A stretch of 64,000 nt of DNA. Origin: Actinopolyspora xinjiangensis. GTDB lineage: Bacteria; Actinomycetota; Actinomycetes; Mycobacteriales; Pseudonocardiaceae. The notes beneath the pieces are model-generated. The model was given only the letters and a program-made list of their open reading frames with translations, was not told the DNA's origin and did not search any database. The first letter of the stretch is position 1, and each line of letters starts with the position of its first letter. The position numbers and the translations under genes were made by a program. Positions 32,717-56,508 of this stretch are shown here, in pieces. Where the stretch lies: assembly GCF_900104475.1 (NCBI RefSeq), contig NZ_FNJR01000012.1, positions 1 through 64,000 of the forward strand. The letters run 5' to 3'.

Positions 32717-34291
32717 CTACTTTCCCTCGTCCTCGGCAGGGGCGGTAGCGCTCTTGGCGTTCTCGGATTCCGCCCCGCCGTGCGGCGGTGTCTCGTCGTA
32801 CAGCGACGGCGTGAACCGCCTGAGCTTCTTGATCGCTTTGCTCTCGATCTGGCGGATTCGTTCCCGGGTGAGCCCGTACTCCTGCCCGATGGTGTCGAGC
32901 GTGGCCGGTTCCCCGACGAAACCGTGCCGCCGCCGCAGGATGTCGCGTTCGCGGTCTTCGCACCATCCCAACGCCCGTTCCACGTCCTCGATCTCGAGGC
33001 CGAACAGATCCGGCTCGATAGGATCCCGGTAGCGTTCCGCCGCTTCGTGCAGTGTCACCGTGTCCAGCTTCTCCAGCAGTCCTTCCAGCGAAGTACTCGT
33101 GGGTAGTTCGGTCAGCAGCCGCCGCACTTCCTCCTCGGAGGTTTCGAGCCGTTCGGCGACGGCTGAGTATTCGACCACCGCATCGGAGCCGCGGAGCGTC
33201 TCGATCGCCGCGAGCACAGGGTTCAGCCGCTCCATGACGTGAACCGGATACCTGATCATGCGGGGCTGGTCGGCCAGCGCCCGGGTGATGGCCTGCCGGA
33301 TCCACCAGGTCGCATAGGTCGAGAACTTGTTGCCCTGCCGATAGTCGAACTTCATCACCGCGCGCAGCAGCCCCAGGTTGCCCTCCTGCACCAAGTCGGC
33401 CAGATCCAGACCGTGTCCTTGGTATTTTCGGGCGTTGGAAAACACCAATCGCAGGTTGGCGTTGACGAATTCGTCGAACGCGTCCCTGCCTTGGCGAACC
33501 AGTGTTCGTAGTTCCCGCGCCTGTGAATCGTTCTCCGCCCGCTGCTCCAGACATTGTTCGGCGAACAGTCCGACCTCGATCGTCTTCGCGAGTTCCACCT
33601 CCCGCTCGGCCGACAGCAGCTCGTATTTCGAGATCTTCTCGCGGTACCGCCACACCCAATCCTTGGGAAAGTCAACGGGACCCGAGGATTCGGAACGGTC
33701 CTCCTTACGCGTCTCGGGAGGCCGCTGCGCGGGAATTTCGGGATGATACATCCATCCCCGGGCCGGTGTCGGAGCACTCGCCTGCGCTGATGTCGACGCC
33801 GGTTTCACCTCGTTTCCTTCCCGCTCGTCCGAGACCTCCCCGGACCGCTGTTCGGTGGGAACGATGCCGAGGTCGGCGAGCGAGATCCGCGAGAGGTCCA
33901 GCACCTCGTCCCCGCGCAGCGCGAGCTCCGTACGCGGTTTCGGGACCCCCGCCCCGCTCCGATTCGGGCCGTACGATCGGCTCCGCCGATCCGGATGGGG
34001 AGCGGTTTCCGAACCGGAGGTCGATTCCGGTCGAGGAGTCGTTTCGGGACGGGGACCAGCGGGGGCCGATACCTCCTGCCCCGCCAGTGCCGCGGGCAGT
34101 GGGATACCGGCTCGTACCAGTTCGCTGAGCAGCGATCGGAATTCCGCTCGCGGGATGCCGAAATCGCGGATCACTGACTGTACGTCGGGAAAGCCGAGCT
34201 CGCGTTGTGCGGCGAGTTCACGCAGCGCGACGACGGCCGCGTCACGAGAGGTCGCGCCCCTGTCCGGGGAGTCGGTCTCGGTGCTGTGCAT
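32717..34291 (-). CDS. HrdB-like sigma-70 factor in the helicase operon
   Basis: A 524-residue sigma-70 protein. Residues about 10-60 resemble region 1.1 helices and about 65-215 are a low-complexity acidic/Pro linker. Region 1.2 follows ([20 protein letters not shown]), then region 2 ([48 protein letters not shown]), region 3 and region 4 ([20 protein letters not shown]). It is thus primary-type, not ECF, and should recognise -10/-35 promoters. Region 2.4 reads RMIRYPVHV where HrdB has RTIRIPVH. It sits 7 nt after the DUF1998 helicase gene, so it appears to be part of the defence operon, either as a dedicated sigma or as a decoy against phage control of polymerase. Confidence 0.9.
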
Positions 34292-34298
34292 GGCGGTC

Positions 34299-37200
34299 TC
34301 ACTTCGCTGTGGCGTCGTTCGGTGCGAAGCTGTCCGGCAAGGTGCCGTTCCGGCCTGTCTTGTTGGTGACCGCGTTCTCCGGGACAGCGCCCTTCAAGGC
34401 AGCGTTTTCCGTGAGGGGAACGAACTCGTGCAGCAGTCGCAGCGCGGCCCCGCGTGAGAGCAGCTCGTGGTAGCGCTGGTTGCGGAATCCCCGCAGGCAG
34501 CCGTAGCAGCTCGTTTCCGGTCCGCACTCACAGTCGTGCATACGTTTCGCGGCGGCGCGTACCACGTCCACGAGACCGTGGGCGATGCGTTGTGTGCTGC
34601 CCGCACCGCCCGGCGTGGTGTCGAACAGCACCAGCGAAGGCACGCCGTCCTCACCGCGGTGCACCGTGCCGTCGATGTCGTCGCGGCTGATCTCCAGCGC
34701 TACGGCCGCTCCTTCCAACAGTGCGTACAGCGCCGAGCGCAGCGCGTTCTGGTCGTGGTCCAGTAGCAGCATCGGCGGGAAACGCAACTCGACGAAATCG
34801 GTCTCGTAGCGGTGTGCCAGTGAGGACCTGCGTAGCGGACCGTCACAGTCGCCGTCCTTGAGCAGGTGGCGGTGTGGTCTGGGGGGCTTGTCCGGCCCCA
34901 CGGGCTGTCCCCATCCGCACCATTGGCACAACTGGAAACCAGCGTGGTTCGGGCCTTCGTTGATGACCACGAACCTCCCGCGCGTCCCAGCGCGCCAGCC
35001 CAGTATCTCCCCGCTGGGAAAGGTGACGCTGTCCTCCTCGACGTCCGCGTGCGAGTCGACGATGTAGGTGGTGCCCGTCCATGAACGCCTGGGGGCCTGG
35101 CTCGCCTTCTGCTCGGTGTGCTTGGAGGCGACGAATCCGTATGAGGGTTCGACGTATTGCTGTGCCTTGTTTGTGCGGACCGTGTGGCAGGCGGGGCACT
35201 CGGCCTCCGGGGGCTCGACGGATTCCCGGTAGTGGCCGCACGCTTCGCACACCGCGTAGTGTCGGCTGACCAGATCCCGCCCCGGCAGGCGGTACACTCC
35301 TCCCGACGTCCACCGCCTGCCACCGGCGATGACCTCTGATCCCGGTGCGTACTCGTTGACGGCCATGCTCAGATCCCTGGTCAGTTCGAGATCGGGTTTC
35401 CGTCCGCCCCTCGCGTGGTCGGTGCGCAGTTCGACGGTGTCGACCGGAAAACCGTACTTGGGCAGTACATTGTGGGTGGCCAGGAAGTTGATCAACGGGC
35501 GCTTCCGAAGCGTTTCGAGTACTTTCTTGTACTGTTCGGCAGCCCGGTAGTTCTGCTGCCGTACCGCTTCTTCCCTGCGCTCCTCGAAAGCGGCCACATC
35601 CTGGCGAAGTTCCCGGCGGGTACTTTCCAGCAGCCGTTCGAGTTCGGTGACCCAGGAGTCGGTGGCCACGCCGATCTCCCGGTGCACGCTGTCGGGCAGG
35701 ATCTCGTCCAGGCTGGCACGCACCGAGTTCGGCACCGGATCGAGGAACTCCGAAAGCCTTGCGACGGGCAGCACGAAATCCGGCGGCGTGGGATCCGGCG
35801 GCAGGAAGAACTCGCCCGCCGTGCGCCAGCTCTCCCCGTGTCGCTGCTTCATCGTTCGGAAGAACGCGGCCAGTGCCACCGAATGGGCGTGCCTGCGGTC
35901 GATGCGTGCGTTCTCCAGCGGCACCACGGGTGGCCGGGTCTCACCCGCGATCATCTTCTCCGGTTCGTTGAAGCGGAACAGATCGTGCGAACGCCGCTGT
36001 GCGTATGTCAGCGCCAGCGCCGCCGAGTCGGCACGTCGACCGGCCCGGCCCGCGCGCTGCACGTAGTTGGCCGTGGTCGGTGGCATGTTGCGCAGCACGA
36101 CCGTTTGTAGCTCGCCGACATCCACGCCGAGTTCGAACGTGGTGGAGCAGGACAGCGCGTTCAGCTCGCCCCGGACGAATTCGCCCTGGATCTCGGCGGC
36201 CTTCTCGTTGCTCCACTGCGCGGTGTGCTCCTGCACGCTCATGGGGACCGGATCGGACTTCTGGTACAGGTGCCGGTAGTGGTCACGCTCCTCGTGCTCG
36301 GCTGGTCGGTACCAGGGTTCGAGGGTCCCGTCACAGCGCAGGGTGGGGCAGACACCGTGAACGTCGAAGCCGAGAATGCGACGACAGCGGTCGCAGCGGA
36401 ACAACCGCTCCGACTCACGCACCGGCCGCAGCCGCAGTTTGCGGTGGTCGATCCTGTGTACCGTGCCGAGTCGGGGCAAGGTCTCGGAGCGCAACCAGTC
36501 CGAAGGACCGTCACTACTCTTCGTCGGGGTGAGGTCCTGCCACAGCTCTTCCAGCAGCTTACGCGGGTCCGTATCGCTGCCGATCCGTCGTAGCACTCGG
36601 GTCAGGTAGTCCAGGCGCCGGTTGGTACCGGATGTCGGCAGCCAGCTCAGCACTTTCCGCTTGGCGTCGGAACCCGACATACGCACGTGGATCGGCCCGC
36701 GTCGAGGTGCGAACGCCTCGTCGTCGGCGTCGACGTCCTCCGGCATGTCCACCGCACCCTGGGTGCGCAGTGTGCGCAGCAGTTCCTGTAGCAGGTTCCA
36801 GCTCTCCTCCTGGGTGAGCCCCAGTTCCAGCAACCGCCGTGGGGGCCGCCAGTGGGGTTTGCGTGCCAGTTCCACTCGGAGCAGGCCCACGCCTTCCAGG
36901 GATTGGCGGTCGTGGTAGCTGATCACTTCCCGCATCGTCCACAGTGCGGCGAACCGTTTGCGTTCATTGCGGGAGGTGTCCTCCTCGAAGACCCGGGCGT
37001 TGTCGGCCGTCCGGGCTGTCCGGTGTGCGAGGTCCTCGATCGTGGCGGGTTCGCCTTTCGCCTCGTCCCAGCCGCGCAGACTCGACAGCAGCAGTCCGCG
37101 GTGCGCGAGGCTCTCGTGGGTGTCCTTGAGATAGGGGGCGAAGTAGGCGGCGGTCTGCCTGCTGTCGCTGAAGAACAGCAACTTGCGCCCCTGTCCCGGC

Positions 37201-39116
37201 AGGTTCACGGTTTCGTCGCTGGTGTCCGGCGGCAGCGCCTGGTACAGAGAGGTGGCCAGCACCGAGGTTGCCGCTTCGGCGCCGCTTTCCAGCAGCCGGA
37301 TCAGTCCACTGCCCCGAGCTCCGCAGGCCAGGCAGTGGTCCAGCGCTCCGGACTGGGAGTGGATCAGTCGCACCGGGCGCAGCTCGGTGCCCGGGCATTC
37401 GTCGACCGGGCATTCGCTCGCGGTGCCCTGGTGCAGCGATCCGCAACCGACACACAGGTGGTACGGACTGTCCTCGGTGGTCTTTCCTTCCTCCAGCAGT
37501 GCGTCGTCCTCGTCCACGTGCCGGGGGTCCGCGCTGTCGTGATCCTCCAGCAGCAGCCAGGCGTGCCGGTGGTCCACTCCCGCCCGCCAGGGGACGTGGC
37601 GCGGCAGCCGTCCACTTTTGTTCATGGCACCGTGCAGGTGCACTGCTCCGCACCGCTGGCAGCCTCCCAGCTCGAACACCATCCTGGGGCAGCGTTCGCA
37701 CCGCTCCCGGCGGCTCAGGCTCAGATGTTGCTCCTGGTCGGTTCCCAGACAGCTGAACGCGCCCTCGGTGGCGCGTACGAAGAAGTGGAACCTGGTGGAA
37801 AGCACCGGGGTCCGATCCGAGTCGTGCACACTTCCCGCGAGCGTGACCAGAGCTGTGGCGGTCTCGGTGGCCTCGTCGCCGTGTTGTTCGGGGACGAGTT
37901 CCGCGGCGATGTCCCGGATCGGTCGCGGGTGTTCGTCGAGCAGCTCGTGCAATCGTCGCAGCCGTGCCTCGCATCGCAGCGCTTCGGCGGCGTCGTTTCC
38001 CTCCCAGCCGTGTTCGCGCGCGGTGCGCAGCAGCTCGGTTCGTGGATCGTCCGTCGCCAGCAGTCCGGCATAGCTCGACGGTGGCAATGGTCCCCATTCG
38101 ACCGCCGTCGTGAGCCGCGTGGGTTTCACGGCGGTGACCAGATCCTGTCGATCCGAATTCTCGGGGGCCCAGTCGAACGGAAGTCCGAACAGTTGGGTGG
38201 CGAAGTCGGTGACCGCCTTCGGGTCACGCTCGGCTCCGACGGTGGCGCTGGTGGCTATCGCGCGCGGTTCGTCAGTCGTACCGACTCGGTTCCGCAGTCG
38301 GCGCAGCAGCATCGCCAGCTCGCTGCCCTTGGCTCCGTCGTAGACATGCGCCTCGTCTACGACCACGAAGCGCCAGTGGGAGGAGTCGGTGTTGGTGAAC
38401 AACTCCGTGTCCTGCGGGCGCAGCAGCAGGTATTCCAGCATCGCGTAGTTGGTCAGCAGCAGGTGCGGCGGTGCCGCGCGCATTTCCTCCCTGCTGAGCA
38501 GCTCGTTGGGTAGCCGCTGCTCGCCCGGGTTGAGTCGGTGGAAGTGCTCCTCGGCTTTGGATTTGGTTTCGTGGGTGTCGCCGGTGTAGCGGCCGAAAGT
38601 GACGTCGGGAATCGTGGCCAACAGTCTGCGCAGTCGTTTCATCTGGTCGTTGGCCAGCGCGTTCATCGGGTACAGCAGCAGAGCTCGAACCCCGGGACCG
38701 AGCGTTCCCGCCGCTCGCTGTTCGGCCAGGTGCGCCAGGACGGGCAGCAGGAAACTCTCGGTCTTTCCGGAGCCGGTCCCGGTGGCCACCACGAGATTTC
38801 GTCCCGCTCGCGCTTTCCGCACCGCGTTCTCCTGGTGCCGGTGCAGTGGTCGATTCGCGGGCAGCTCCGGTCCGGTGAAATCCAGGAAGGACTCGGGCAG
38901 CACTCCTTCCGCGATCAGCTCGGTGATGTCCGCGCCTGCCTCGTAGCTCGGGTTCGCTTCCAGCAACGGGCCGTTGGACAGCAGGGGGCTGCTGGTGATG
39001 GCTTCGTCGAGTGCGCCTGCCAGTGCGGAGTCCCGCAGTGGGAGCAGCGAACGCAGGTAGCGGCGGTATGCCTCGTTGATCTGTGCGCTGGCGTGCAGTG
39101 GGTTGAATCGGTTCAC
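34299..39116 (-). CDS. Large DEAD/DEAH helicase with C-terminal DUF1998 (DruE/DrmA-DrmB-like)
   Basis: A 1605-residue SF2 helicase. Walker A is GTGSGKT (about 113-119), Walker B DEAH (about 254-257), motif III TSATVG (about 289-294) and motif [13 protein letters not shown]. Several Cys clusters between and after the RecA lobes ([33 protein letters not shown]) suggest zinc knuckles. The C-terminal DUF1998 has TTPGGAGS and the four-Cys [12 protein letters not shown]. Helicase plus DUF1998 in one chain matches Druantia DruE or a fusion of DISARM DrmA and DrmB. GTG 39116 is chosen because it overlaps the upstream gene's stop (GTGA) and gives the family start [20 protein letters not shown]; the open frame extends 171 codons further but inside the upstream gene. 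Confidence 0.88.
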
Positions 39117-42100
39117 GAAGGGTTCTTTCTGCTGTGTTGTGGTGTCGGAGAGGTTTCGTTCGACTGCTGTTCCTGCCGCGCCCGCTGCTCCTGCCGTGCC
39201 TGGTGTGCCACCGTCAGGAACTCGGCGAGCACCAGATCGGTGGCGACCCGATCGGGAGCGAGTTCGGCGAGGTGGGTCCAGCCGTGGCGCACCAGTCGTT
39301 CGACCGCCGCCGCGTCGCGGTCCCGCTGTGCGGCCAGCCGCGCCGTCAGGGCCAGTTCGAGGGACAGCCGTTCCAGTGGAAAGTCGGGATGTGGATCGGC
39401 GGTGCGACGTCGCGAGGCGATCTCGAAGAGTTCGGGATATCGCTTGCGGTAGATGAACCGTCGCAGCTCGTTCCGGCAGTTCCGCAGTTCGTCGAGCGAT
39501 TCCGCGGTGAGGGTCAGTTCGCCGCTCGGGGTGGGGTGCTCGGGTGTCTGTTCGCCCAGCAGCGGGGGTGTGTTCTCGTCCGGATCGGTGCGGTCGCCGG
39601 TGAGCAGTTCGAGTGCTCGCGGCGCGCACCGCTGGTCAAATGTGTCCAGCAGTGCGGTTTCCGTCGTGTCCAGTTCGTCCTGCTGCCAGCCCGTCGATCC
39701 GGTGCGGTAGAACAACAACGGGCCGGTCAGCAGCAGCGCGGGTAGCGGTCTGCTGGTCCAGAGGGAGCGGACTCGTTCGGGATCGGCCACATGGCGCGAG
39801 GCGTGTGCGGCGATTCCGGACCGTACGATAACCGGAATGAGATCGCGCGCGCTCGTTCCGCTGTCGGAACTGGCCAGCAACGAGGCCACGGGATCGTCCC
39901 CCAGCCTCATGGCGCATTCCTTTGCCGTGGTGCGCCCCGACGCCGGTTCGAGTAGTTGTTCGGCCCGCGCGGCCGAGGCCCACAGCAGCGGTAACGCCGT
40001 GGTGGTGCGGGGCAGCGATCCTCGCCCCGCGAGATAGCCCGCCGTTTCTTGCTCGACCGGTTCGGCGAGTTCCGGAATCCGGCTCTCGTCGCCCACACGG
40101 AAGACGCTTCCCGCTTCTGAGGGGGTGACTCCGCCGGTCCGGTTCGGTTGTGCCCAGGAATGGTGCACCGTGACCAGCAGTGGTGCTTCGGTATCGAACC
40201 GGGGCGGCAGTTGGACGGTGTCCTCGGAGGCGGCCAGCTCGACGGTGTGTGTGGGTCGCCAGGGCGTGTACGGGCAGTCCACCCGCACCCGCAGCCGTTC
40301 CCGAGTCGCCCGCTCGGTGATTAGCAGCCGGGCGTCTTGTTTCCGTACTCCACTCGCCGGTTTCGGTAGCCGTACGGTGGCGAGCTCGACCCCCTGCCCG
40401 GGCAGGTCCAGTCGGAGCCGCAGCGAGCCGTGCGCGCGTACGGTGTCGATCAGTCCGGCGAGTTTGTAGCGGATCACATCGCTGGCGGGCAGCCGCTGTC
40501 CACGCAGCTGTTGCAGCGTGTCGCTCCCGTCGTGGGCCAGCAGTACGGGACTCCCCTCGTGCGCCTCGCGTATCACCTCGGGTAACGAGAGATCCAGGCA
40601 CGCGTTCTCGGACAGCTGCCCCAGGGTGTAGTGCAGCCGGTTGATTCCCCAGTCCTGGTTGTGCGTGCCCAGCCGTTTCCGCATCGCGGCGTGCTCGGGT
40701 TCCACGCGCAGCGTCAGCCGTCGCGTCTCGTCGGCCGTGCGCAGCTCAACCGCGCCGCTGCGGGCGCTCTCGCGCAGTTGAACGGTTTCCGGAACCGCGA
40801 GGACGTTCTCCGGGGTGCGGATCGAAACCCGCGCTCGGTAGAGCTGTCCCGTTTCCCGGAGCATCCGCACCCGTGGAGTGGGGGTGGCACCGAGGCCTTT
40901 TACGAGGGTGAATGTGGTGCTGCTCGCCTGCCCGCCGGAGTCGACCGCTCGGATCCGGAACCGTCCCATGGCGGAGCGGGGCATCAGTTCGTCCAGCTCC
41001 ACCGGGCCGTCCGTCGCGTTCACCTCCCACGAGGCGCTCTGCCCGGGGGTATCACCGATGATCTCCACCGTCCACCGCTGGGTGTCGTCGCCGGTGAGGT
41101 GCAGGACCGGCGCGGCGGAATGAACCGAGTCCCCATCCCGGTCGCGTAGCGTCGGAACCGGGGCGTCGAAGGTGAACTCGGCGTGTGTCGCGAGGTTCAC
41201 GGTACGCCAGGTACCGAACCGCGTGCCGGCCCTGCCGTCGCCGATCCCGGGACGCACGCCCCGGGTCTCGTCGAGCAGTACCCGTCCCAGCCACCAACCG
41301 GACCAGCCGTTCGGCGGTGCGAGTTCCTCCAGCACGTGCCGTTTCCCGTCGAAGCACCCCGGCCCCGGTTCGCCCCGATGCAGCAGCCACACCTCCCCAG
41401 CGGGGATCGGTTCTCCCGACGGGATGAGCGCACCCTCGGTGTCGAAGACCAACAGCGGGTCGTCCGGACTGACCAGCGGCACCCACTGCGACTGCCCGAA
41501 AGGATCGCGGCACTCCACCGTCTCGACGGGTCGTGTCACCAACCAGTGGTTCTCGACCGATGGGCACACGGCGCTTCCGGCTCGAACGCGCCACAGTCGC
41601 GGCAATGTCGCGTCGGAGGTCAGCACCACCGTGCCCCGATCCGGATCGAGCCCCGCCTCGAAAGTGGCCGCCTGTGGTTCACCGGTTCCAGCTGTCGAGA
41701 GCAGCGCGGCCAGAGCGGTGGTGTGCCGCTCGTCGGGGTGTGCCGTGAGTTCGTTCCGGTCCCGTTCGGTCAGGGTGTGCCAGGCCGCGGCGAAGGCGCG
41801 TAGCCAGGTGTCGGCGTCGATCGTGACGGGTGTTTCCGCTGCCGGACCCAGTGCCGTTTCGACGGCCGGTGGGGAAAGCGCGCCACGTGGCTCGCCGGGA
41901 TCGGGTGAGTCGGCGACCAGCCGCACCAGCGTGACCACGGTGCAGTACGGCCAGCGCCGGAACACGGTACCCGGATCGGAGTCGGTGGCGTGCTCGGCGC
42001 GAAGCCGCTCGTAGGCGTGCAGTGCGACAAGCACCAGATTCCGGCGATGTTTCCCTGAAATGGGGTTTTCCGTTGCCCGTGCCGCGTGCGGGGTGTTCCG

Positions 42101-42676: not shown

Positions 42677-42873
42677 GGTTTTCCCGGATGGTTACGTCGG
42701 TGTGCCGGAGCGATCCCGTTGGTTTCGTGATGGCTCGGGATTCGAGGGGCGGGAACACGTTTCCCGAGACCACGACGAAAGTGATTACCCGGCGCTGGTT
42801 TGCCTCGTGGCAGTCTAGTTCACTGCCCGGTCCGCGCGGGTTGTTTTCGGATAACAGCGATGGTTCGCACCGG

Positions 42874-45237: not shown

Positions 45238-45327
45238 GGCGTTCCTCTCTCGTGAAGCGGGTCTGGCCTCTCTCGTGGAACAGCTCTGGGTGGTGCGATC
45301 GTCTGACAACCGCCCGCGTTGAAAGCG

Positions 45328-45394: not shown

Positions 45395-45433
45395 GTTTAC
45401 GGTTCGGATCCCGGAACAGGACAGGACGTCGCG

Positions 45434-47837: not shown

Positions 47838-50800
47838 ATGACAACGACCAGTGAGGGACTGGAGACCGGTGCGCTGGTCTCGGTCCGTGGGCAGAAGTGG
47901 GTCGTCAGCGAGGTCGACCAGGGCGAGACCAGCACCCTGGTGGGGTTGCAGAGCGTGGAGGACGGCCGTTACGGCGAGACGCTGGAGGTGCTCTGGGAAC
48001 TCGAACCGGGCAGGCAGGTGCTGCCCGCCGGTTCGCTGCCGGAGCTGCCCGAACAGGACTTCGACCCGCCGGAACGCCTGGCCGCCTTTCTGGACGCGGT
48101 GCGCTGGTCGGCGGTGACCTCGGCCGACGTGAAGACGCTGCAGGCTCCGTTCCGCTCGGGCGTGGCGATCGAGGACTACCAGCTCGAACCGGTCGCCCGC
48201 GCCATGGACTCCCCGCGCGTGAACCTGCTGCTGGCCGACGACGTGGGCCTGGGCAAGACCGTCGAGGCCGGGCTGGTGGCTCAGGAGCTGCTGCTGCGCC
48301 AGCGCGGCAAGCGCATCATGATCGTCTGCCCGGCCGGGTTGACCGCCAAGTGGCGCGACGAGATGGCCGAGAAGTTCGGCCTGGACTTCACGATCATCGA
48401 CTCCGAGTGCTGCGCGCGGGTGCGCCGCGAGTACGGCAGCGCGGCCAACCCGTTCAACATCTTCCCCAGGGCCATCGTCAGCCTACCCTGGTTGCGCGGC
48501 GCCAAGGCGCAGCGACTGCTGGGCGAAGTGCTGCCCGCCGGAGAACCGACCTACCCGCGCACCTTCGACCTGCTCATCCTGGACGAGGCCCACCACGCGG
48601 CCCCGGCCGCGCCGAAGCAGGTCTACGCCGTGGACTCGCAGCAGACCAAGCTGATCCGCACGCTGGCCCCGCACTTCACGCACCGGCTGTTCCTCTCGGC
48701 CACCCCGCACAACGGTTACCAGGCGTCGTTCACCGCTCTGCTGGAGATCCTCGACGACCAGCGGTTCGCTCGCGGCGTGGAGCCGGACCGGGCGGCGGTG
48801 GACGAGACCGTGGTGCGGCGGCTCAAGACCGAGATCACCGACGCCGACGGCACCCCGCGCTTCGCCCGCCGCCGCGCGGTGGCCCTGCCGGTGGAGTATC
48901 CGGACAGCGAGCGCGAGATCCACGGCCTGCTGACCCGGTTCGCCGCGGCACGCCGCGACAAGCTCGCCTCCCGCCGGGGCCGCAAGGCCACCGACCTGGT
49001 GACGCTGCTGCTGAAGAAGCGGCTGTTCTCCAGCCCCGCCGCGTTCGAGCACACCGTGGGGGTGTATCTGGACACGCTGCGCTCGCGGTCCGGCTCGGCT
49101 CAGCTCGACGACGACGTTCCGGAGTGGATGGACGAGTTCTTCGACGAGCTCGCCACCTACGACGACGAGCACATGGCCGACGCCGAGGACGACGCGCTGG
49201 ACCGTACCCGCCCGATGCAGCCGGACCCGGCCGAGGACGAGATCGGCCTGCTGGAGCGGATGCGGGAGTGGGCGCGCTCGCACGAGGCCCAGCCCGACGC
49301 CAAGGCCCGCGAGCTGATCAAGCACCTCCAGCAGGTGTGCAAACCGGACCGGGACTGGACCGACGAGCGAATCGTGGTGTTCACCGAGTACCGCGACACC
49401 CAGCAGTGGCTGGCGAACCTGCTCCGCCAGGAGGGCCTCGGCGGTGACAGGCTGGCCGAGCTGCACGGCGGCATGAGCACCGAGGAACGGGAGCGGCTGC
49501 GGCTGGCCTTCCAGAAGCACCCGAGCGAGCACCCGCTGCGCATCCTGCTCGCCACCGACGCGGCCAGCGAGGGCATCGACCTGCAGAAGCACTGCCACCG
49601 GCTGGTCAACTACGACATCCCGTTCAACCCGAACAAGCTGGAACAGCGCATCGGCCGCATCGACCGCTACGGCCAGACCCGGGTCCCCGAGGTCCGGCAC
49701 TTCGTCGGCACGGGCTGGGACGGCGCGGTGGACTCCTACGAGGCCGACCTGGAGTTCCTGGCCCGGGTGGCCGACAAGGTCGCCCGCATGGCCGAGGATC
49801 TGGGGTCGGTCAACGCGGTGCTCTCGGACAAGGTGCAGCGCCGGATGCTCGGCCAGACCGTCCGCGACGACGAGGTGGACAGCGCGGGCAGCACGAAGGA
49901 CCGGCTCGTGGTGGAGTCGAACGTGCGCGAGCAGGTCCGCAAGCTGCGGCAGAACCTTGACCGCACGGTCAGCGAGCTGGGGATCACCCCGCGGCGCGTC
50001 AAACGGGTGGTCGACACCGCGCTGGAACTGGCCGGGCAGCAGCCGCTGCGCGAGCACGTCGACGACCGCGAGGCCCCCGTGCCCGGGACGCTGTACGACG
50101 TGCCCGCGTTGACCGGCTCCTGGACCCGCGCCACCGAGGGGCTGACCGAGAAACCGGTCGAGCCCGACCAATCGCGAAACGCCGAGCAACCGCGCCAGCT
50201 GCCGGTGACCTTCGACCCGGCCGTGGCCGAGGGCCGCGACGACGTGGTGCTGGCCCACCTCAACCACCCGCTGGTGTCGATGTCGACCGGTCTGCTGCGC
50301 TCGGCGGTGTCCAACGAGAACTCGGAGCTGCACCGGGTGACCGCGGTGGTCAGCGACGACCCAGAGCTGGAGGACGTGCTGGTCGGCGCGTACTCGCGGT
50401 TCGTGCTGGTCGGCGCCGACGGGGTGCGGCTGCACGAGGAGGTCATCCACGCGGGCGGCTGGGCACCGGCCAACGGGCGGTTCCGCAGGCTGGAGAACCT
50501 CGGCACGCTCGGCGGCATCCTGGACCGCGCGCTGACCGACGGCACCCCCGCGCCCCCGCCGGTGTGGAACCGGATCGTGGGCCGCTGGCCCAAGGTCCGG
50601 GAGGGCCTGCTCTCGGCCATCGACTGGCGCACCCGCACCCGGCGGGACTCGCTGCGGCGCACGCTGGCCCAGCGCGAGGAGGCCGAGCGGGAGCGCATCA
50701 ACACCGTCATCGACCAGTTCGCGAGCACGCTGCGCGCCAAGCTGGCCGAGGACGAGGACCAGGCGGAGGAGGCGTTGTTCAGCCGCGCCGACGTCAGCCG

Positions 50801-50984
50801 CAGCCGGGAGGAGCGCGCCCAGTACCGCCGCGACCGGCAGAAGTGGCAGCAGCGGCTGGACCAGCTCGCCACCGAGCGGGACCGCGAGCTCGGCGTGATC
50901 GCCGAGCGCTACCGCGAGCAGGAGCCGCACCGTTTCCCCGTAGCCGTGATCGTTGTCGTGCCGAAGCGAGAGGCGACCCGATGA
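47838..50984 (+). CDS. drmD: DISARM-type SNF2 helicase DrmD
   Basis: A 1048-residue SNF2-family ATPase. Walker A region is ADDVGLGKTVEAGL (about 133-146), Walker B ILDEAHH (about 247-253), motif III FLSATPHNGY, and the C-terminal lobe ends RIGRIDRYGQT. Long size, the absence of a nuclease domain, and tight coupling to the DrmMI methylase match class 1 DISARM. In DISARM it helps remodel or translocate incoming DNA. The N-terminal 100 residues form a beta-rich adaptor. ATG 47838 has GGGGGAAAG upstream, and its stop overlaps drmMI by 4 nt. A 247-nt gap separates it from the HTH-methylase gene. Confidence 0.87.
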   Translation: MTTTSEGLETGALVSVRGQKWVVSEVDQGETSTLVGLQSVEDGRYGETLEVLWELEPGRQVLPAGSLPELPEQDFDPPERLAAFLDAVRWSAVTSADVKTLQAPFRSGVAIEDYQLEPVARAMDSPRVNLLLADDVGLGKTVEAGLVAQELLLRQRGKRIMIVCPAGLTAKWRDEMAEKFGLDFTIIDSECCARVRREYGSAANPFNIFPRAIVSLPWLRGAKAQRLLGEVLPAGEPTYPRTFDLLILDEAHHAAPAAPKQVYAVDSQQTKLIRTLAPHFTHRLFLSATPHNGYQASFTALLEILDDQRFARGVEPDRAAVDETVVRRLKTEITDADGTPRFARRRAVALPVEYPDSEREIHGLLTRFAAARRDKLASRRGRKATDLVTLLLKKRLFSSPAAFEHTVGVYLDTLRSRSGSAQLDDDVPEWMDEFFDELATYDDEHMADAEDDALDRTRPMQPDPAEDEIGLLERMREWARSHEAQPDAKARELIKHLQQVCKPDRDWTDERIVVFTEYRDTQQWLANLLRQEGLGGDRLAELHGGMSTEERERLRLAFQKHPSEHPLRILLATDAASEGIDLQKHCHRLVNYDIPFNPNKLEQRIGRIDRYGQTRVPEVRHFVGTGWDGAVDSYEADLEFLARVADKVARMAEDLGSVNAVLSDKVQRRMLGQTVRDDEVDSAGSTKDRLVVESNVREQVRKLRQNLDRTVSELGITPRRVKRVVDTALELAGQQPLREHVDDREAPVPGTLYDVPALTGSWTRATEGLTEKPVEPDQSRNAEQPRQLPVTFDPAVAEGRDDVVLAHLNHPLVSMSTGLLRSAVSNENSELHRVTAVVSDDPELEDVLVGAYSRFVLVGADGVRLHEEVIHAGGWAPANGRFRRLENLGTLGGILDRALTDGTPAPPPVWNRIVGRWPKVREGLLSAIDWRTRTRRDSLRRTLAQREEAERERINTVIDQFASTLRAKLAEDEDQAEEALFSRADVSRSREERAQYRRDRQKWQQRLDQLATERDRELGVIAERYREQEPHRFPVAVIVVVPKREATR

Positions 50985-53900
50985 GCCCGAAACCGTTCCA
51001 CCGCAAGGCACCGGACGCAGCAGAGCAGCACCGCGAGTGGCTGGACCTGGTCGAGGTGAGCGGCCCGTTCCTCTCGCTGCCGGTGCTCAAGCGGCACTGG
51101 CCGAGCGGGCCGGACGCGCTGGACAAACCCACCAGGCAGCGGCTGCGTCGCGCGCACTCGGCCTGGCAGGCCGACGTGGTCGCGGGGCAGCGGGACTGGA
51201 TCGACTACGTGCTCGGCGAGCTGCTCGGCTGGGGCGAGCGGCTGCGCCGCGAGGGTCTGGAGGGGCTCTCGCTCGACGTGGCCGAGCACGACACCCGGCT
51301 GGCGCCCTCCTTCGCGCTGGTCGAACCCGAGGAGCGCGTCGAGCCGGACGGGCGGGCCGAGCCGGGCGAGCGGGCCGAGTCGGCCGAGCAGGTCAAGCCG
51401 GACGCGGTGCGGCTGCTCGGCATGGTCTGCGAGCCGGGCCAGCAGCCCACCGCCCGGCTCGCCGGTTCCAGCTGGGCCGCCACGCCCGCCGACCGGCTGG
51501 CCCAGCTGTGCCGCCACCACGGCGTCGAGCTCGGCCTGGTCACCGACGGCCGCTGGTGGGCGCTGGTGCGCGCCCCGCGCATCGGGGTGACCACCACGGC
51601 CGTGTTCGACGCGGTGCCGTGGCCGGAGGCCGCCGAACGCGACGTGGTGCGCGCCTTCGTCTCGCTGCTGGGGCGCAAGCGGTTCTTCGCCGTGCCGGAG
51701 GGCGAGCGGCTGCCCGAGCTGCTCAAGGCCAGCGAGGACTCGCAGGAGGAGATCACCGAAGCGCTGGGCGTGCAGGTGCGCGAGGCGGTGGAGCTGCTGG
51801 TGGCCGCGTTCGGCCGGGCCAGCACCGAGCAGCGCCGCCGTGGCGAGTCCGAACTGGACTCGGTGCCCGCGCACGAGGTCTACCGCGGCGCGGTGTCGGT
51901 GATGATGCGCGTGGTGTTCCTGCTGTTCGCCGAGGAGCGCAGGCTGCTTCCCTCGGACAACGAGCTGTATGCCACCACCTACTCGGCTGGTCGGCTCTAC
52001 GACGAGCTGGAGCGGCGCGAGCTGGAGTCCAGCGAGGAGGATCTGCAGCAGACCTACACCGGCTGGTACCGGCTGCTGGCGCTGTTCGAGGCGGTCTACC
52101 GGGGCGTGAGCCATCCCAGGCTGACGATGCACCCGCACGACGGTTCGCTGTTCGACCCGGACGCGTTCCCGTGGCTGCCGCTGAACATCGACGACCGCAC
52201 CGTGCTGCACATGCTGCGGTCGGTGCAGCACGTCTGGGTGGGCAGCGGTAAGTCGCGCGAGCGGCGCACTCTGTCGTTCCGCTCGTTGGACGTGGAGCAG
52301 ATCGGCTACGTCTACGAGGGCCTGCTCTCCTACGACGGGTTCCGCGCCGAGGACACCACCGTGGGGCTGGTGGGCAAGCAGGGCAGGGAGGCCGAGGTGC
52401 CGCTGCGGCGGCTGGAGGAGCTCGCCGCCGACAGCGCCGACACCACCGAGCTGGCCGGGACGCTGGCGGCCGAGTTCAAGGACTCCGGCATCGGCACGGC
52501 CAAGCAGCTGGCCAAGCGGCTCGCCCCGCCGGACGCGGTGGAGCGGGAGGAGCGGCGCAAGAAGCTGCTCGGCGTCACCAGGGGTGATGCCGCGCTGACC
52601 GAGCGGCTGCTGCCGTTCCGGGGTGTGATCCGCGACGATCTGCGCGAGCTGCCGGTGGTGGTGCTGGGCGGGGAGCTGTTCGTCACCGAGTCGCCGCTGC
52701 GCGCCAACACCGGCACGCACTACACCCCGCGCTTCCTGGCCGAGGACGTGGTGCGCCACGCCCTGGAACCGCTGGTTTACGAGCCGGGGCCGTTGACCAC
52801 GGCCGAGCAGCGCGAGTGGCGGCTCAAGCCCAGTGAGCAGATCCTGAAGCTGCGGGTGGCCGACATCGCGATGGGTTCGGCCGCGTTCCTGGTGGCGGCG
52901 GCGCGGTATCTGGGCGGCAGGCTGCTGGAGGCCTGGATCGCCGAGGACGACGAGCGGGTGCGCGAGTACCAGCCGCAGGAGCACGCCGGGGACAGCGAGG
53001 AGGACCCGGCGGTGGTGGAGGCGCGCAGGCAGGTGATCGAGCACTGTCTGTACGGCGCGGACATCAACCCTATGGCGGTGGAGATGGCCAAGCTCTCGCT
53101 GTGGCTGGTTTCCATGGACTCCCAGCGGCCGTTCACCTTCCTGGATGACCGGTTGGTGGCGGGGGACTCGCTGTTGGGGATCACCTCGCTGGAGCAGCTG
53201 GAGTACATGCACCTGGACGCCAGGAAGGGGCGGGCGATCCACGAGCGGTCCCCAGTGGACTTCACCGCCGATGTTCGTTCGCTGGTGTCCGAGGTGGCCG
53301 AGCAGCGCCGTGAGCTGCGCGAGATCGATGGCACCACAATGGAAGGGCTGAACCGCAAGCGCGCGCTGCTGGCCGAGGCCAACCTCAAGGGCAGGCGGGC
53401 CGAGCTGGCCGCGGATCTCACCGTCGGCGCCGCTCTCGCGCATGCCGGGCGCGGTGAGAAAGGGCTGCGCGACGGCTCCATCGCCGCCGCCGACCACGCG
53501 CGGCGAATGCACACCGACGAGGCCCGCGCTCGCGAACAGGCCCGCGAGTGGCTGGACACCGACCTGCCCGAGGGCAACTTCGGCCGCGAGACGCTGCACT
53601 GGCCGCTGGTCTTCCCCGAGGTCTTCGAGGACGGCGGCTTCGACGCGGTGGTGGGTAATCCGCCGTTTTTGGGTGGGCTGAAGCTCACCGGTGCGCTCGG
53701 CACGGCGTATCGCGAATTTCTGGTGCACACTCTTGGCAGAGGCGCACGTGGATTGGCCGACCTCGTGGCCTATTGCGAACTGCGTGCTCACGCTGTGATT
53801 AACGAAACTGGCCAGAGTGGCTTGATCGCCACCAACACCCTGGCACAGGGCGACACCCGCGAGGTCGGCCTGGACCAGCTCGTCGATGACGGAGTGACGA

Positions 53901-55120
53901 TTCGCCGTGCGGTCAAGAGCGAACCCTGGCCGTCCAAGAGCGCGGCGCTGGAGTACTGCGCCGTGTGGACCAGCAGGGCTGAGCTGAGCGCGCGGGCGCG
54001 ACGAATTGCCGATGGGGTTGCGGTGGATGGCATCACACCTTCGCTCGATGTCGAATCCCGTGTGACCGGCAACCCGGAACGGCTTGCGGCGAACCGTGGT
54101 ATCGGATTCATCGGCTCATACGTGCTGGGCAAGGGATTCCTCATGCGGCCTGAAGAAGCAGCAGCCATGATTGAGAGCGATCCCAGTAACGACGAGGTCC
54201 TCTTTCCTTACCTCAACGGGGACGATCTCAACTCGCGGGCGAACTGCGAGGCCAGTAGATGGGTAATAAACTTCTTTGACTGGCCTGAAGAGGAAGCCAA
54301 GAAGTACCCGACCTGCTACGAGAAAGTTCTTCGAGATGTCAAGCCTGTAAGGGAAGAGAATAATCGCAAGGTATACCGCGATTACTGGTGGCAGTATGCT
54401 GAGCAACGTCCAGCGATGCGGAAGGCTATCGCTGATCTGGATCAGGTGTTGGTGCTCACGCGGGTGAGCAAGACCGTGATGCCAGCGATGCTACCCACCG
54501 GTCAGGTTTTCTCAGAGGCGACAGTTGTGTTCGCCACCGAGGACACGGCGATGCTGTCCTTGCTGTCGAGCGCGCAGCACTACTGGTGGGCGAAAACTCG
54601 TTCCTCGTCGATGAAGACTGATCTCCGCTATGCGCCCTCCGACGTCTTCGAGACCTTCCCACTGCCGGAACTCACTCAGGAACTACGGGATCTCGGCGAC
54701 GAGTTGGATCGCTATCGCAGGGACGTGATGCTCACGCGGGATTCGGGGCTGACCAAGACCTACAACCTGGTGTTCGATCCGGAGTGCACCGATTCGGACA
54801 TCGTCGAGTTACGGCGGATTCATCGCGAGATCGACGAGGCCACGGTGCGCGCCTACGGTTGGCAGGATCGCATCGACGCGGTCGGCGGCCTGGACCACGG
54901 TTTCCACCCGGTCGGCCGCGAGACCCGCTACACCATCGGCCCCGCGGCCCAGCGCGAGATCCTGGACAGCCTGCTCGAACTCAACCACGAGCGCCACCAA
55001 CAGGAAGTCGCCCAGGGCCTGCACGACAAGAAGAAGGGCACCAACAAGCAGGCGACCGCCAAGAAGAACACCTCACGCAAGTCCAGCGAACCCGAGGACG
55101 GCCAGGGAACCCTGCTGTGA
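50981..55120 (+). CDS. drmMI: DISARM-type adenine methylase DrmMI (Eco57I-like)
   Basis: A 1379-residue N6-adenine methylase. The SAM motif is VADIAMGSAAFLV (about 626-638), followed by INPMAVEMAKLSLWL, and the catalytic motif is VVGNPPFLGG (about 890-899), intact. An N-terminal alpha-beta part (about 1-320) and a long middle helical part precede it; the target-recognition region follows (about 930-1250), and the tail is Lys-rich. DrmMI marks host DNA as self in class 1 DISARM. The segment about 53700-54700 that encodes the recognition region is visibly less GC-rich and less codon-biased than its flanks, as if exchanged. ATG overlaps the drmD stop (ATGA); the longer open frame upstream lies inside drmD. 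Confidence 0.87.
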   Translation: MSPKPFHRKAPDAAEQHREWLDLVEVSGPFLSLPVLKRHWPSGPDALDKPTRQRLRRAHSAWQADVVAGQRDWIDYVLGELLGWGERLRREGLEGLSLDVAEHDTRLAPSFALVEPEERVEPDGRAEPGERAESAEQVKPDAVRLLGMVCEPGQQPTARLAGSSWAATPADRLAQLCRHHGVELGLVTDGRWWALVRAPRIGVTTTAVFDAVPWPEAAERDVVRAFVSLLGRKRFFAVPEGERLPELLKASEDSQEEITEALGVQVREAVELLVAAFGRASTEQRRRGESELDSVPAHEVYRGAVSVMMRVVFLLFAEERRLLPSDNELYATTYSAGRLYDELERRELESSEEDLQQTYTGWYRLLALFEAVYRGVSHPRLTMHPHDGSLFDPDAFPWLPLNIDDRTVLHMLRSVQHVWVGSGKSRERRTLSFRSLDVEQIGYVYEGLLSYDGFRAEDTTVGLVGKQGREAEVPLRRLEELAADSADTTELAGTLAAEFKDSGIGTAKQLAKRLAPPDAVEREERRKKLLGVTRGDAALTERLLPFRGVIRDDLRELPVVVLGGELFVTESPLRANTGTHYTPRFLAEDVVRHALEPLVYEPGPLTTAEQREWRLKPSEQILKLRVADIAMGSAAFLVAAARYLGGRLLEAWIAEDDERVREYQPQEHAGDSEEDPAVVEARRQVIEHCLYGADINPMAVEMAKLSLWLVSMDSQRPFTFLDDRLVAGDSLLGITSLEQLEYMHLDARKGRAIHERSPVDFTADVRSLVSEVAEQRRELREIDGTTMEGLNRKRALLAEANLKGRRAELAADLTVGAALAHAGRGEKGLRDGSIAAADHARRMHTDEARAREQAREWLDTDLPEGNFGRETLHWPLVFPEVFEDGGFDAVVGNPPFLGGLKLTGALGTAYREFLVHTLGRGARGLADLVAYCELRAHAVINETGQSGLIATNTLAQGDTREVGLDQLVDDGVTIRRAVKSEPWPSKSAALEYCAVWTSRAELSARARRIADGVAVDGITPSLDVESRVTGNPERLAANRGIGFIGSYVLGKGFLMRPEEAAAMIESDPSNDEVLFPYLNGDDLNSRANCEASRWVINFFDWPEEEAKKYPTCYEKVLRDVKPVREENNRKVYRDYWWQYAEQRPAMRKAIADLDQVLVLTRVSKTVMPAMLPTGQVFSEATVVFATEDTAMLSLLSSAQHYWWAKTRSSSMKTDLRYAPSDVFETFPLPELTQELRDLGDELDRYRRDVMLTRDSGLTKTYNLVFDPECTDSDIVELRRIHREIDEATVRAYGWQDRIDAVGGLDHGFHPVGRETRYTIGPAAQREILDSLLELNHERHQQEVAQGLHDKKKGTNKQATAKKNTSRKSSEPEDGQGTLL

Positions 55121-55170
55121 CGCCACCCCGACCTCGACAACTCCAGAACCGGAACCGGTTACCTGTTGGT

Positions 55171-55189
55171 CGCGGGGCCGCGCCCCGCG
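55171..55189. terminator. Hairpin downstream of drmMI
   Basis: CGCGGGGC and GCCCCGCG pair perfectly around a CGC loop, 50 nt past the drmMI stop and between convergent genes, so it may serve both strands. Confidence 0.6.
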
Positions 55190-55229
55190 CCTGCGGAAGT
55201 TTCCCGGCGTTGGAGCGGAAAGACAGTGG

Positions 55230-55261
55230 TTCTGCGCCGCTTCTCGGGAGGCGGCGCAGAA
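55230..55261 (-). terminator. Hairpin just past the Shedu original stop
   Basis: TTCTGCGCCGC and GCGGCGCAGAA pair over 11 bp around a 10-nt loop. It lies 16 nt past 55277, the stop codon of the unshifted Shedu frame, which supports that frame being the ancestral 3' end. Confidence 0.65.
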
Positions 55262-55276
55262 TTCGTCTCTCGTGCT

Positions 55277-56508
55277 TTACGGGGTAGGCGCGTCTCCCAA
55301 TGCGCGTGCGGCGTTGTCGAGGAGCTCGGTGTAGGTGAGGACTTCGACGCGGTTGGTGTGGGTGTTGAGGGTGCGCAGGGCTTCGTTGAGCTCGCGCTCG
55401 GCGATCTCCGGGTGCAGCTGGGGGTGGCCGATGACCACGGTCGCGCTGGCGCGCTTGGTTTCGAGCCCGAATTCGTCGCGGATGCGCTGTCGGTGCTCGT
55501 CGAGGCTGGCGAGGTAGTTGATGGCCTGCCCACGGCGTTGTGCACTTCGGCAGTGGGCACCCAGGCGTTGCGGTGTCGTTTGATTATTCCGGAGACGCCC
55601 AGGGAGCGCTTGAGTTCGACGATGTGCAGGGACCCGTCGGCCCGGATCAGTGGGATGTCGAGTTCCTCGCCGTCGACCAGGCGACGTCGTGTGGCCGCAT
55701 CGACGAAGCGCCCACCGAAGATCCAGGGGTGATGCTGGAGGAGTTCTTGGAGAGCTTCTTCTCCTGTCGTCGGGTCGTCGACGAGCTTGCGGAGCTCGGT
55801 AAGGGTGTCCGAGCGTTGTTTGAGTTCGGTGGCTTTGAGGATCGCTTGTCCGTCCGGATCCTTGGCGAGAGCTTCGACTTTTTCCGAGGACATGGCGATT
55901 CGCTGCGCTGTTTCTCCGGGATTTTCGATGTCGATTCGTTCGGACAGAACGCGTTGTAACCAGAGCATCAGTTCGGCTCTTCCGCGCACTAGACGGTAGC
56001 GACCTGGAGTCTCTTCAGGAGCATCGAGAAGCTGTGCGTCATCACCCAACTCCCTCAAGCGTGTGAGTAGATCGTGAAGTCCTGCTCCCGGCTGCTCGAC
56101 GAGATAATCGTTTCCTGCTTCGTTGATAAACTTGAGTGTGCGGCTGAGCGTGCCCGCGACGAGTTTCTGCAGGCTGTCTTTACGTTTACTATCCTTGATG
56201 AGACGATAACGTTCGTCGAAATCGGGCTTAAGGATCCTGCCAGTTGCGTAGCCATGTGCCTCGTGGAGTAGACAGACGATGTCCCACTCGTTTTCTTCAG
56301 ATGCACGTAGCCGAGCCTGCTCCAGTAATCTGCGCAAGGTTTGTCCTGCCCTGTAATCTCGACCTTTTCCGCTGCGCATATGCGCGATGACGTCAGTGAT
56401 GGCCTGTCTCACCTCCTGGGCGGTCGCTTCCCGCTCGGTGTGTTCCAACTGCCGTTCCAGCGTCGCGTCAGCTCGAATCTTCATATCGAACATTGTGTGC
56501 AAAGACAC
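55277..56508 (-). pseudogene. Shedu-type (DUF4263) anti-phage nuclease, frameshifted
   Basis: A SduA-like PD-(D/E)xK nuclease gene. Residues about 250-301 hold LLQHHPWIFGGRFVD, DGEELDIPLIRADG and HIVELKRS, the catalytic core of DUF4263. After codon 327 (GTG GGC at about 55530) the frame breaks: the original frame would continue as VGQAINYLASLDEHRQR and VVIGHPQLHPEIAERELNEA and stop at 55277-55279, giving 410 residues, typical for Shedu. The present frame instead runs into a Ser/Thr/Pro-rich tail to 55159. One missing C (GGC-AGG for GGC-CAG-G) explains it. It is a genuine mutation, a phase-variable slip or a sequencing error. The N-terminal 240 residues are helical. GTG 56508 lacks a clear ribosome site; ATG 56493 is an alternative. 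Lower GC than the core. Confidence 0.82.

What the first reader, a model, noticed from the sequence alone, without database searches (positions are those of the whole stretch)
32717..56508. Composite defence island: DISARM half-system joined to a DUF1998 helicase-sigma operon
drmD and drmMI of class 1 DISARM are present and tightly coupled, but drmA, drmB and drmC are missing. Across the divergent promoter lies a helicase-DUF1998 fusion that could replace DrmA+DrmB, coupled to a large unknown protein and a sigma factor, with DndB-like and HTH-methylase genes between and a Shedu gene at the end. I know of no named system with this content. Either two systems sit side by side, or this is one multi-part system.
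Basis: partly seen in the sequence, partly recalled or inferred. Interest (0 to 1): 0.9.

Follow-up and report, generated by a model that had tools for sequence, protein, structure and literature searches.

The report
Anti-phage Druantia system with sigma factor
The stretch holds two separate anti-virus systems side by side, a complete one called DISARM that merely runs past the window's edge and a Druantia-type helicase system that carries its own transcription (sigma) factor, a pairing that recurs in other bacteria and in one group is found fused into a single protein.

Summary
The genes are there, but the "DISARM half-system" is a window-edge effect: drmA, drmB and drmC lie 3-10 kb past the window end on the same contig and strand, each above its NCBIfam cut-off. 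The leftward "helicase-DUF1998 fusion" is DruE, the core of Druantia, preceded by a divergent DruH-like protein. It does not stand in for DrmA+DrmB: the two systems occur apart, and the cassette also sits beside a complete DISARM in Pseudonocardia asaccharolytica.

What is new is the sigma factor. sigma-druE-druH was lost as one block in a congener. Thirteen cassette sigmas (window group, Streptomyces) form one clade apart from 34 other sigmas. On the DruE tree sigma marks one clade: 13 of 16 rows have it, 2 lack it, 1 is unseen. In the class of Ktedonosporobacter, 3 of 47 genomes carry this DruH and all three have it fused to a sigma-70. No paper in the searched library holds both "Druantia" and "sigma factor". 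Likeliest mechanism: DruH senses phage, sigma gives a transcriptional output, DruE processes DNA; the sigma's role is inferred.

The parts
32717..34291 (-). Cassette sigma-70 factor, 524 aa: own N-terminal region (~1-205), regions 1.2, 2, divergent 3, and 4; starts 7 bp after the druE stop
   Evidence: Pfam r1.2, r2, r4; NCBIfam MzaA 261 bits, under its cut-off of 800; own clade; spacing
34299..39116 (-). druE: YprA-family DEAD helicase with C-terminal MZB/DUF1998, 1605 aa, no nuclease domain recognised; GTG start overlaps stop of upstream gene by 4 bp
   Evidence: PADLOC DruE1 640 bits; Pfam DEAD, Helicase_C, MZB only; start from sequence; best stretch with PDB 9tu7 ends at our 1563 and its 1717 of 2108
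39113..42676 (-). druH-like gene, 1187 aa; residues 1-180 proline-rich; possible Ig-like stretch 540-627
   Evidence: No Pfam, PADLOC or NCBIfam match; weak titin match E=0.005; profile match to the E. coli DruH family 94% with one alignment, 23% with another
32735..42872 (.). Block absent from congener G005, where 184 bp stand in its place and the last codons of the sigma gene remain (deletion scar): extent of the three-gene cassette
   Evidence: blastn of G005 against window; scar translation
32083..32706 (-). NADAR-domain (N-glycosidase-like) gene, 207 aa, after sigma; outside the cassette (kept in G005)
   Evidence: TIGR02464 170.6 bits, cut-off 73.7; kept in G005
42874..43635 (-). DUF4352 protein, island neighbour kept in G005 and G006 without the cassette
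   Evidence: Pfam
44011..45309 (-). DndB/DGQHR-like protein, DISARM-side neighbour
   Evidence: Pfam DndB 7.9e-9; conserved in G003, G005, G006, G009
45434..47590 (+). HTH-N6 DNA methylase, 718 aa, DISARM-side accessory
   Evidence: Pfam N6_Mtase, PADLOC MTase_I 550 bits; relatives next to complete DISARM in G127, G146, G006
47838..50984 (+). drmD of class 1 DISARM
   Evidence: NCBIfam DISARM_DrmD 1405.7 bits, cut-off 610
50981..55120 (+). drmMI of class 1 DISARM (MmeI-like methylase), 1379 aa
   Evidence: PADLOC DrmMI 1792 bits; ATGA overlap with drmD
55159..56508 (-). Shedu (sduA) gene broken by a frameshift after about residue 327, lying between drmMI and drmA
   Evidence: one frame in G003 and G006
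56824..63010 (+). Four DUF3558 gene pairs separating drmMI from drmA (drmA-C lie beyond 64000)
   Evidence: Pfam DUF3558 for the first; the other three by similarity

Best explanation
Two independent anti-phage systems share one island. (1) A complete class 1 DISARM (drmD, drmMI, then drmA, drmB, drmC just past the window), with an HTH-methylase and a DndB-like neighbour, interrupted by a Shedu gene and DUF3558 gene pairs. (2) A Druantia type III-like cassette, druH-druE, with a dedicated sigma-70 factor as third component. Likeliest working of the cassette: DruH recognises a late phage protein, as proposed for E. coli DruH; the sigma is its transcriptional output, so that infection turns on druH-druE (and perhaps the divergent promoters beside it) through host RNA polymerase; DruE then loads on ssDNA-containing phage DNA and blocks replication. 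Shown here: gene content, conservation, loss as one block, sigma/DruE co-clustering, DruH-sigma fusion. Inferred: every biochemical step. The confidence below is for the two-system reading with sigma as a functional third component; the specific sensor-to-sigma switch I put at about 0.45.
For: drmA-C next to it. DruE by profile. Block loss in G005 with a sigma scar. In the genus the DruH-like gene is in 3 of 10 genomes, and the same three (G000, G003, G009) are those of the 100 genomes with a sigma match at E=6e-277 or better; the best match of each of the other 97 is 1e-64 or weaker. Unfused cassette sigmas form one clade, 13 of 13, support 100/99, with none of 34 other sigmas inside. DruE clade with sigma in 13 of 16 rows. 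Sigma is fused to the DruH C-terminus in 3 of 3 carriers found among 47 genomes of the class of Ktedonosporobacter, each followed by druE; the fused N-termini match the DruH-like profile at 99.96%, E=3.7e-39, 730 columns. The RNAP-clamp motif D[LI][IV]QEGN is kept in 13 of 13 cassette sigmas and 2 of 3 fusions. E. coli DruH as likely sensor and DruE as effector: PMC13192584, passages.
Against: In Streptomyces (8 of 8 cassette sigmas) the two-tryptophan motif of region 2.4 is altered, and in the 5 of the window group the region 3.2 finger looks degenerate, so normal initiation is not assured. Two Streptomyces of the clade with whole druE lack the sigma (L063, L073), and three with truncated druE show none either (L093, L099, L101). 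The tested M. smegmatis DruH-DruE protects without a third gene (PMC13316683), as does E. coli Druantia III (PMC13192584), so sigma is not needed by the family at large. The one Ktedonosporobacter sigma in the tree lies outside the actinobacterial sigma clade, so the link rests on two recruitments, not one. DruH membership is not settled. No structure could be predicted.
Confidence: 0.75

Rival explanations
1. RNA-polymerase tethering: DruH-sigma parks the Druantia machine on promoter-bound RNA polymerase, so that DruE is delivered to melted, transcribed phage DNA; sigma guides the effector and does not regulate genes.
For: Sigma is fused to DruH itself in 3 of 3 carriers of the Ktedonosporobacter class. 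The RNAP clamp motif and the region 4.2 helix are kept while melting tryptophans or the 3.2 finger are altered in the unfused sigmas, as expected if docking matters more than initiation. E. coli DruE engages ssDNA-containing DNA (PMC13192584 abstract passage).
Against: The three fused sigmas keep WW and, by eye, a finger near the housekeeping form, which speaks for normal initiation. No contact evidence.
Confidence: 0.25
2. Decoy or guard: the sigma is bait for phage anti-sigma proteins or sigma-appropriation factors; binding triggers DruH and DruE.
For: Region 4, a usual anti-sigma target (recalled), is well kept; fusion to the presumed sensor; fast divergence of cassette sigmas, stem length 1.21.
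Against: Reported triggers of type III Druantia are late structural or tail proteins, not anti-sigma factors (PMC13316683 abstract; PMC13192584 passages). DNA-reading parts are largely conserved, which bait does not need.
Confidence: 0.12
3. The sigma gene is a passenger of the island, or merely an autoregulator of no consequence to defence.
For: Two clade members with whole druE lack it, three truncated Streptomyces loci too; in Streptomyces it is divergent, not in the operon.
Against: Co-clustering of sigma and DruE trees across the window group and Streptomyces, loss as one block, fusion to DruH.
Confidence: 0.12
4. One composite multi-part system in which DruE stands in for DrmA+DrmB of a truncated DISARM.
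For: A DrmD-type helicase near the cassette recurs: divergent DISARM with a 69%-identical DrmD in P. asaccharolytica, an SNF2 helicase scoring 966 bits to a PADLOC DrmD model in G117, weaker DrmD matches beside L074 and L084.
Against: drmA-C are present in this genome and in P. asaccharolytica; each half occurs without the other.
Confidence: 0.03

Closest known systems
Druantia type III (DruH-DruE), E. coli and Mycolicibacterium smegmatis
   Same: Large DruH-like protein followed in overlap by a YprA-family DruE helicase with MZB/DUF1998; sizes near M. smegmatis DruH 1132 aa and DruE 1667 aa (PMC13316683, part 1 of 7).
   Different: Has a dedicated sigma-70 factor; DruE lacks room for the C-terminal PLD domains of E. 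coli type III; DruH too divergent for PADLOC or NCBIfam. The nuclease-free DruE fits the 'Druantia Type III-like' branch of PMC12458937.
Class 1 DISARM
   Same: drmD, drmMI in overlap, then drmA, drmB, drmC on the same strand; DrmD, DrmA, DrmB, DrmC pass NCBIfam cut-offs, DrmMI matches PADLOC DrmMI.
   Different: About 12 kb with Shedu and four DUF3558 pairs separate drmMI from drmA; HTH-methylase and DndB-like genes alongside. NCBIfam gives DrmMI only sub-cut-off BREX methylase matches.
ARMADA (YprA helicase + BrxHII-like helicase + PglX-like methylase)
   Same: The same three kinds of protein lie near each other (description in PMC12458937, parts 1-2).
   Different: Here the YprA helicase is DruE with a DruH-like protein, on the opposite strand, and the BrxHII-like helicase is DrmD of a complete DISARM; no Vsr nuclease among Pfam hits.
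MZA (mzaABCDE)
   Same: A sigma-70 protein (MzaA) as member of a defence operon; best NCBIfam match of the cassette sigma.

Membership tests
Druantia (any type) | DruE: YprA-family helicase with MZB/DUF1998 | tested here: met
   PADLOC DruE1 640, DruE3 615 bits; Pfam DEAD, Helicase_C, MZB
Druantia type III | DruH upstream of DruE | tested here: inconclusive
   Right place and size. 0 of 26 aligned relatives match PADLOC; NCBIfam gives one chance-level match in 26. hhalign to a single E. coli DruH 0.1% and 0.3%; profile-profile 94.0%, E=1.4e-7, 776 columns with A7 but 23.1%, E=9e-4 with A4; control DruH family vs DruE 0.4%
Druantia type III | Two C-terminal PLD nuclease domains on DruE (E. coli form) | tested here: not met
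   Best stretch with PDB 9tu7 (presumably an E. coli-type DruE; the record says DEAD/DEAH box helicase) ends at our 1563 of 1605 and its 1717 of 2108; no PLD match in Pfam. PMC12458937 says the type III-like branch most often has none
Druantia type III | Protects against phage | not testable with these tools
   needs plaque assays
Class 1 DISARM | DrmD | tested here: met
   1405.7 bits, cut-off 610
Class 1 DISARM | DrmMI methylase | tested here: met
   PADLOC DrmMI 1792 bits, residues 150-1507 of the 1518-aa open frame; PADLOC type IIG model 760 bits; no NCBIfam DrmMI match
Class 1 DISARM | DrmA, DrmB, DrmC in the locus | tested here: met
   G000:C22:66873-73853, outside the window: 1431, 723 and 240 bits, cut-offs 950, 240, 133
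[quoted passage not shown]
   DruE on the opposite strand with a DruH-like protein; DrmD passes the DISARM cut-off; no Vsr match among Pfam hits of DruE
MZA | MzaA at equivalog level | tested here: not met
   261 bits, cut-off 800
Shedu | intact SduA | tested here: not met
   PADLOC SduA 403 bits over residues 9-328 but reading frame broken

The most novel reading that the evidence does not exclude
A branch of Druantia couples immunity to transcription: the phage sensor DruH carries, or works with, its own sigma-70 factor, so that host RNA polymerase holoenzyme becomes part of the defence machine, either switching the system on when phage protein binds DruH or bringing the DruE helicase to promoters melted on phage DNA. 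It arose at least twice: as a separate gene in Actinomycetota and, by gene fusion, in the class of Ktedonosporobacter (Chloroflexota).
Probability: 0.5. Interest if true: 0.8.

Novelty: new variant of a known kind. Interest (0 to 1): 0.6.

Why it matters
A sigma factor as a core part, even a fused domain, of an anti-phage helicase system would link immunity to the host transcription machinery, a frequent target of phage takeover. It offers a directly testable sensor-to-output design (DruH-sigma fusion in one protein) for a system whose sensor role is still called indirect in the latest work (PMC13192584, passage). It also corrects a would-be 'half DISARM': truncation by a window or contig end can mimic a new system.

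Tried and rejected
Rejected: DISARM half-system and DruE-for-DrmAB (drmA-C found). Insertion of the cassette into an empty site in G005: the site keeps the sigma 3' end, so it reads as a loss, not a pre-insertion state. ARMADA and MZA membership. Sigma as a mislaid housekeeping sigma. orf207 (32083-32706) as a fourth cassette gene: it is a NADAR gene that stays in G005.

Led nowhere: DruH-like in plasmids, viral contigs, the Nocardia relative and the fusion N-terminus in plasmids: no match. DruH against PDB: a weak titin match and two chance-level matches for the profile. The region upstream of druH is alignable in three species, but I tested no promoter claim on it. Structure prediction was never run: the machine was busy at all 14 tries, so there was no fold search either. 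I had no M. smegmatis DruH sequence for a direct comparison.

Limits of counts: the genome-contig scan used two DruE peptide patterns, so it samples close kin of this DruE; of 46 loci, L105 (22%, partial) was left out of all counts. Rows under 1100 aa (L093, L098, L099, L101) were left out of the DruE tree; 8 further rows had, in my judgement, too little flank and were not labelled; 'without sigma' means none in the fetched flank. The DruE tree is a quick one with SH-aLRT support only. Six duplicate sigma rows were removed from the sigma tree; 'other' sigmas are loci returned, not every match; of the fusions only the Ktedonosporobacter one is in it. The match lists are capped. A6 holds 6 sequences, five of them from 19 plasmid records found. 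A7 was made after the single-sequence DruH comparisons had failed, so its 94% is a chosen result beside 23% for A4. The window's family is unnamed; that it is Pseudonocardiaceae is my guess. Genes in loci L060-L104 were called by a script of my own.
Full report
Observation. The named genes are real. Two corrections of gene starts: the DruE reading frame is open to 39629 but its likely start is the GTG at 39116, overlapping the stop of the upstream gene by four bases, giving 1605 aa; DrmMI starts at 50981 in an ATGA overlap with drmD. Sigma starts 7 bp after druE ends. So druH-druE-sigma is a tight leftward operon, and drmD-drmMI a tight rightward one.

The missing DISARM genes are not missing. 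The window is G000:C22:1-64000 of a 220,665-base contig. tblastn of DrmA, DrmB and DrmC from two annotated DISARM plasmids against G000:C22:56001-96000 finds all three on the + strand past the window end; the ORFs L154:10873-14826, 14823-17054 and 16972-17853 pass the NCBIfam cut-offs for DrmA, DrmB and DrmC. Between drmMI and drmA lie the Shedu gene and four DUF3558 pairs. In congeners G003, G006 and G009 drmA-C likewise follow at a distance (no Shedu was found in the 60 kb fetched of G009); in G005 the contig ends about 4 kb after drmMI, before drmA could appear. Of 30 listed plasmid records with a DrmD relative (583 in all) I opened five (H31-H34, H40): in 5 of 5, drmD and a methylase are followed by drmA and a DUF1998 or DrmB gene.

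The Shedu gene is broken in this genome: PADLOC similarity runs over residues 9-328, after which the conserved C-terminus continues in another frame, while G003 and G006 read through in one frame. An assembly error cannot be excluded.

The leftward helicase is DruE. PADLOC gives DruE1 640 and DruE3 615 bits, Pfam DEAD, Helicase_C and MZB. The closest PDB sequences are helicases of 2108 and 1970 aa (9tu7, 9wae); that 9tu7 is an E. coli-type DruE is my inference. PMC12458937 (read in parts 1-4 of 8) describes a 'Druantia Type III-like' branch whose helicases most often have no nuclease domain, which this fits.

The 1187-aa protein. Nothing in Pfam, PADLOC or NCBIfam matches it, nor, at more than chance level, any of 26 aligned relatives upstream of DruE in PADLOC or NCBIfam. 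Against one E. coli DruH (YjiT, L197) hhalign gives 0.1%, and 0.3% for the fusion N-termini. Against a six-member alignment of that family (A6) it gives 94.0%, E=1.4e-7 over 776 columns with an 11-member alignment (A7) but only 23.1%, E=9e-4 with the 26-member one (A4); the control, the DruH family against DruE, gives 0.4%. Its best PDB match is a weak one to titin at residues 540-627 (E=0.005), of interest because PMC13192584 reports three Ig-like domains in E. coli DruH (passage). I call it DruH-like; membership is likely but not proven.

The sigma factor is the new element. (a) Unit of loss: in G005 the NADAR gene, DUF4352, DndB-like, HTH-methylase, DrmD and DrmMI are collinear with the window (77-98% identical), but 10,138 bp from 32735 to 42872 are replaced by 184 bp, and the last codons and stop of the sigma gene remain. 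One event removed sigma, druE and druH together. (b) Co-occurrence in the genus: the DruH-like gene is in 3 of 10 genomes; of the 100 genomes the same three have sigma matches at E=6e-277 or better, and the best match of each of the other 97 is 1e-64 or weaker. (c) Another genus of the family: G117 has DruE 67%, DruH-like 41% and sigma 46% in the same order, beside an HTH-methylase, HsdM, HsdS and an SNF2 helicase; no DrmMI was found in the 40 kb fetched, but that helicase, 25% identical to the window's DrmD, scores 966 bits to a PADLOC DrmD model. (d) P. asaccharolytica: DruH-DruE-sigma in the same order, divergent from a complete DISARM. (e) Streptomyces, 14 loci: 8 have the sigma, divergent and upstream of the DruH-like gene; 2 with whole druE lack it (L063, L073); 3 with truncated druE show none (L093, L099, L101); 1 is cut inside DruH (L061). 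(f) Tree of sigmas (48 rows): 13 unfused cassette sigmas form one clade (support 100/99), and none of 34 other sigmas from these and related genomes falls inside. (g) Tree of DruE (45 rows: 14 with sigma, 23 without in the fetched flanks, 8 unlabelled): one starred clade of 16 holds 13 with sigma, 2 sister rows without, 1 unseen; 3 changes of state are needed, 0 of 500 shuffles as low. (h) Fusion: in Ktedonosporobacter rubrisoli the ORF before druE is 1346 aa with sigma-70 regions 1.2, 2, 3 and 4 at its C-terminus. A search of the 47 held genomes of its class with the first 900 residues finds 3 carriers including itself; all 3 are fused to sigma and followed by druE. The N-termini match the actinobacterial DruH-like profile at 99.96%, E=3.7e-39, 730 columns. 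The Ktedonosporobacter sigma groups with other sigmas of its own genome (the tool warned of long branches), so this looks like a second, independent recruitment.

What the sigma keeps (alignment read by eye). The RNAP-clamp motif D[LI][IV]QEGN is in 13 of 13 unfused and 2 of 3 fused sigmas; the region 4.2 helix [TS]RER[IV]RQ is in 16 of 16. The tryptophan pair of region 2.4 (WW) is kept in the 5 of the window group (G000, G003, G009, G117, P. asaccharolytica) and the 3 fused ones and altered in 8 of 8 Streptomyces; the region 3.2 finger looks degenerate in the 5 of the window group. Functional names of these motifs are recalled from sigma-70 biology. So polymerase docking looks preserved nearly everywhere; full promoter opening is less sure.

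How it may work. E. [quoted passage not shown] in M. smegmatis the pair blocks phage DNA circularisation and replication and is activated by a minor tail protein (PMC13316683, abstract and part 1 of 7). A sensor fused to a sigma is the layout of a one-protein switch: phage protein binds DruH, sigma is freed or positioned, polymerase transcribes the defence operon. I favour this (about 0.45), with polymerase tethering as the main rival (0.25). All biochemical steps are inference.

The two systems together. DISARM and the cassette are adjacent and divergent in three species of the window's genus and in P. asaccharolytica, but each is also found alone. DrmD-type helicases also lie near the cassette in G117 and, more distantly related, near L074 and L084. 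Bell et al. report synergy of Druantia III with ARMADA in E. coli (PMC12458937); a similar partnership here is possible and untested.

Novelty in print. Searches of the paper library: 'Druantia' with 'sigma factor', 0 papers; at least 4 of Druantia, sigma factor, helicase, Shedu, DndB, 1 paper, with no Druantia in it; at least 2 of Druantia, sigma-70, sigma70, RNA polymerase sigma, 863 papers, none of the 20 listed with Druantia. In PMC12458937 'sigma' occurs twice, both as a company name; in PMC13192584 'sigma factor' and in PMC13316683 'sigma' do not occur. Most subscription journals are not held, so this is not proof of absence.

Noticed in passing
window 55159-56508 and G000:C22 56-67 kb: A Shedu gene (frameshifted here, one frame in G003 and G006, not found in G009) and tandem DUF3558 pairs (G000, G003, G009) sit between drmMI and drmA.
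   Followed up: partly
window 32083-32706: NADAR-domain N-glycosidase-like gene 10 bp after sigma; weak match to a NADAR anti-phage family.
   Followed up: partly
G000:C12:147142-154222: The same genome holds a second YprA-family helicase followed by a DrmD/BrxHII-like helicase, ARMADA-like in order.
   Followed up: no
G143:C1:137500-166000: Two DrmMI-like genes in one DISARM locus.
   Followed up: no
L054:4853-7327: An SMC-like ATPase lies between the DruH-like gene and the DUF4352 gene in G117.
   Followed up: no
window 45434-47590; L146; L144: HTH-N6-methylase (PADLOC MTase_I PDLC03037) recurs next to DISARM, upstream of drmD here and after drmC in G127 and G146; also divergent from the DruH-like gene in two Nocardiopsis next to HsdM.
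   Followed up: partly
L195:6415-10856: E. coli K-12 yjiT (shortened) and yjiV (pseudogene) look like a remnant of Druantia III.
   Followed up: no
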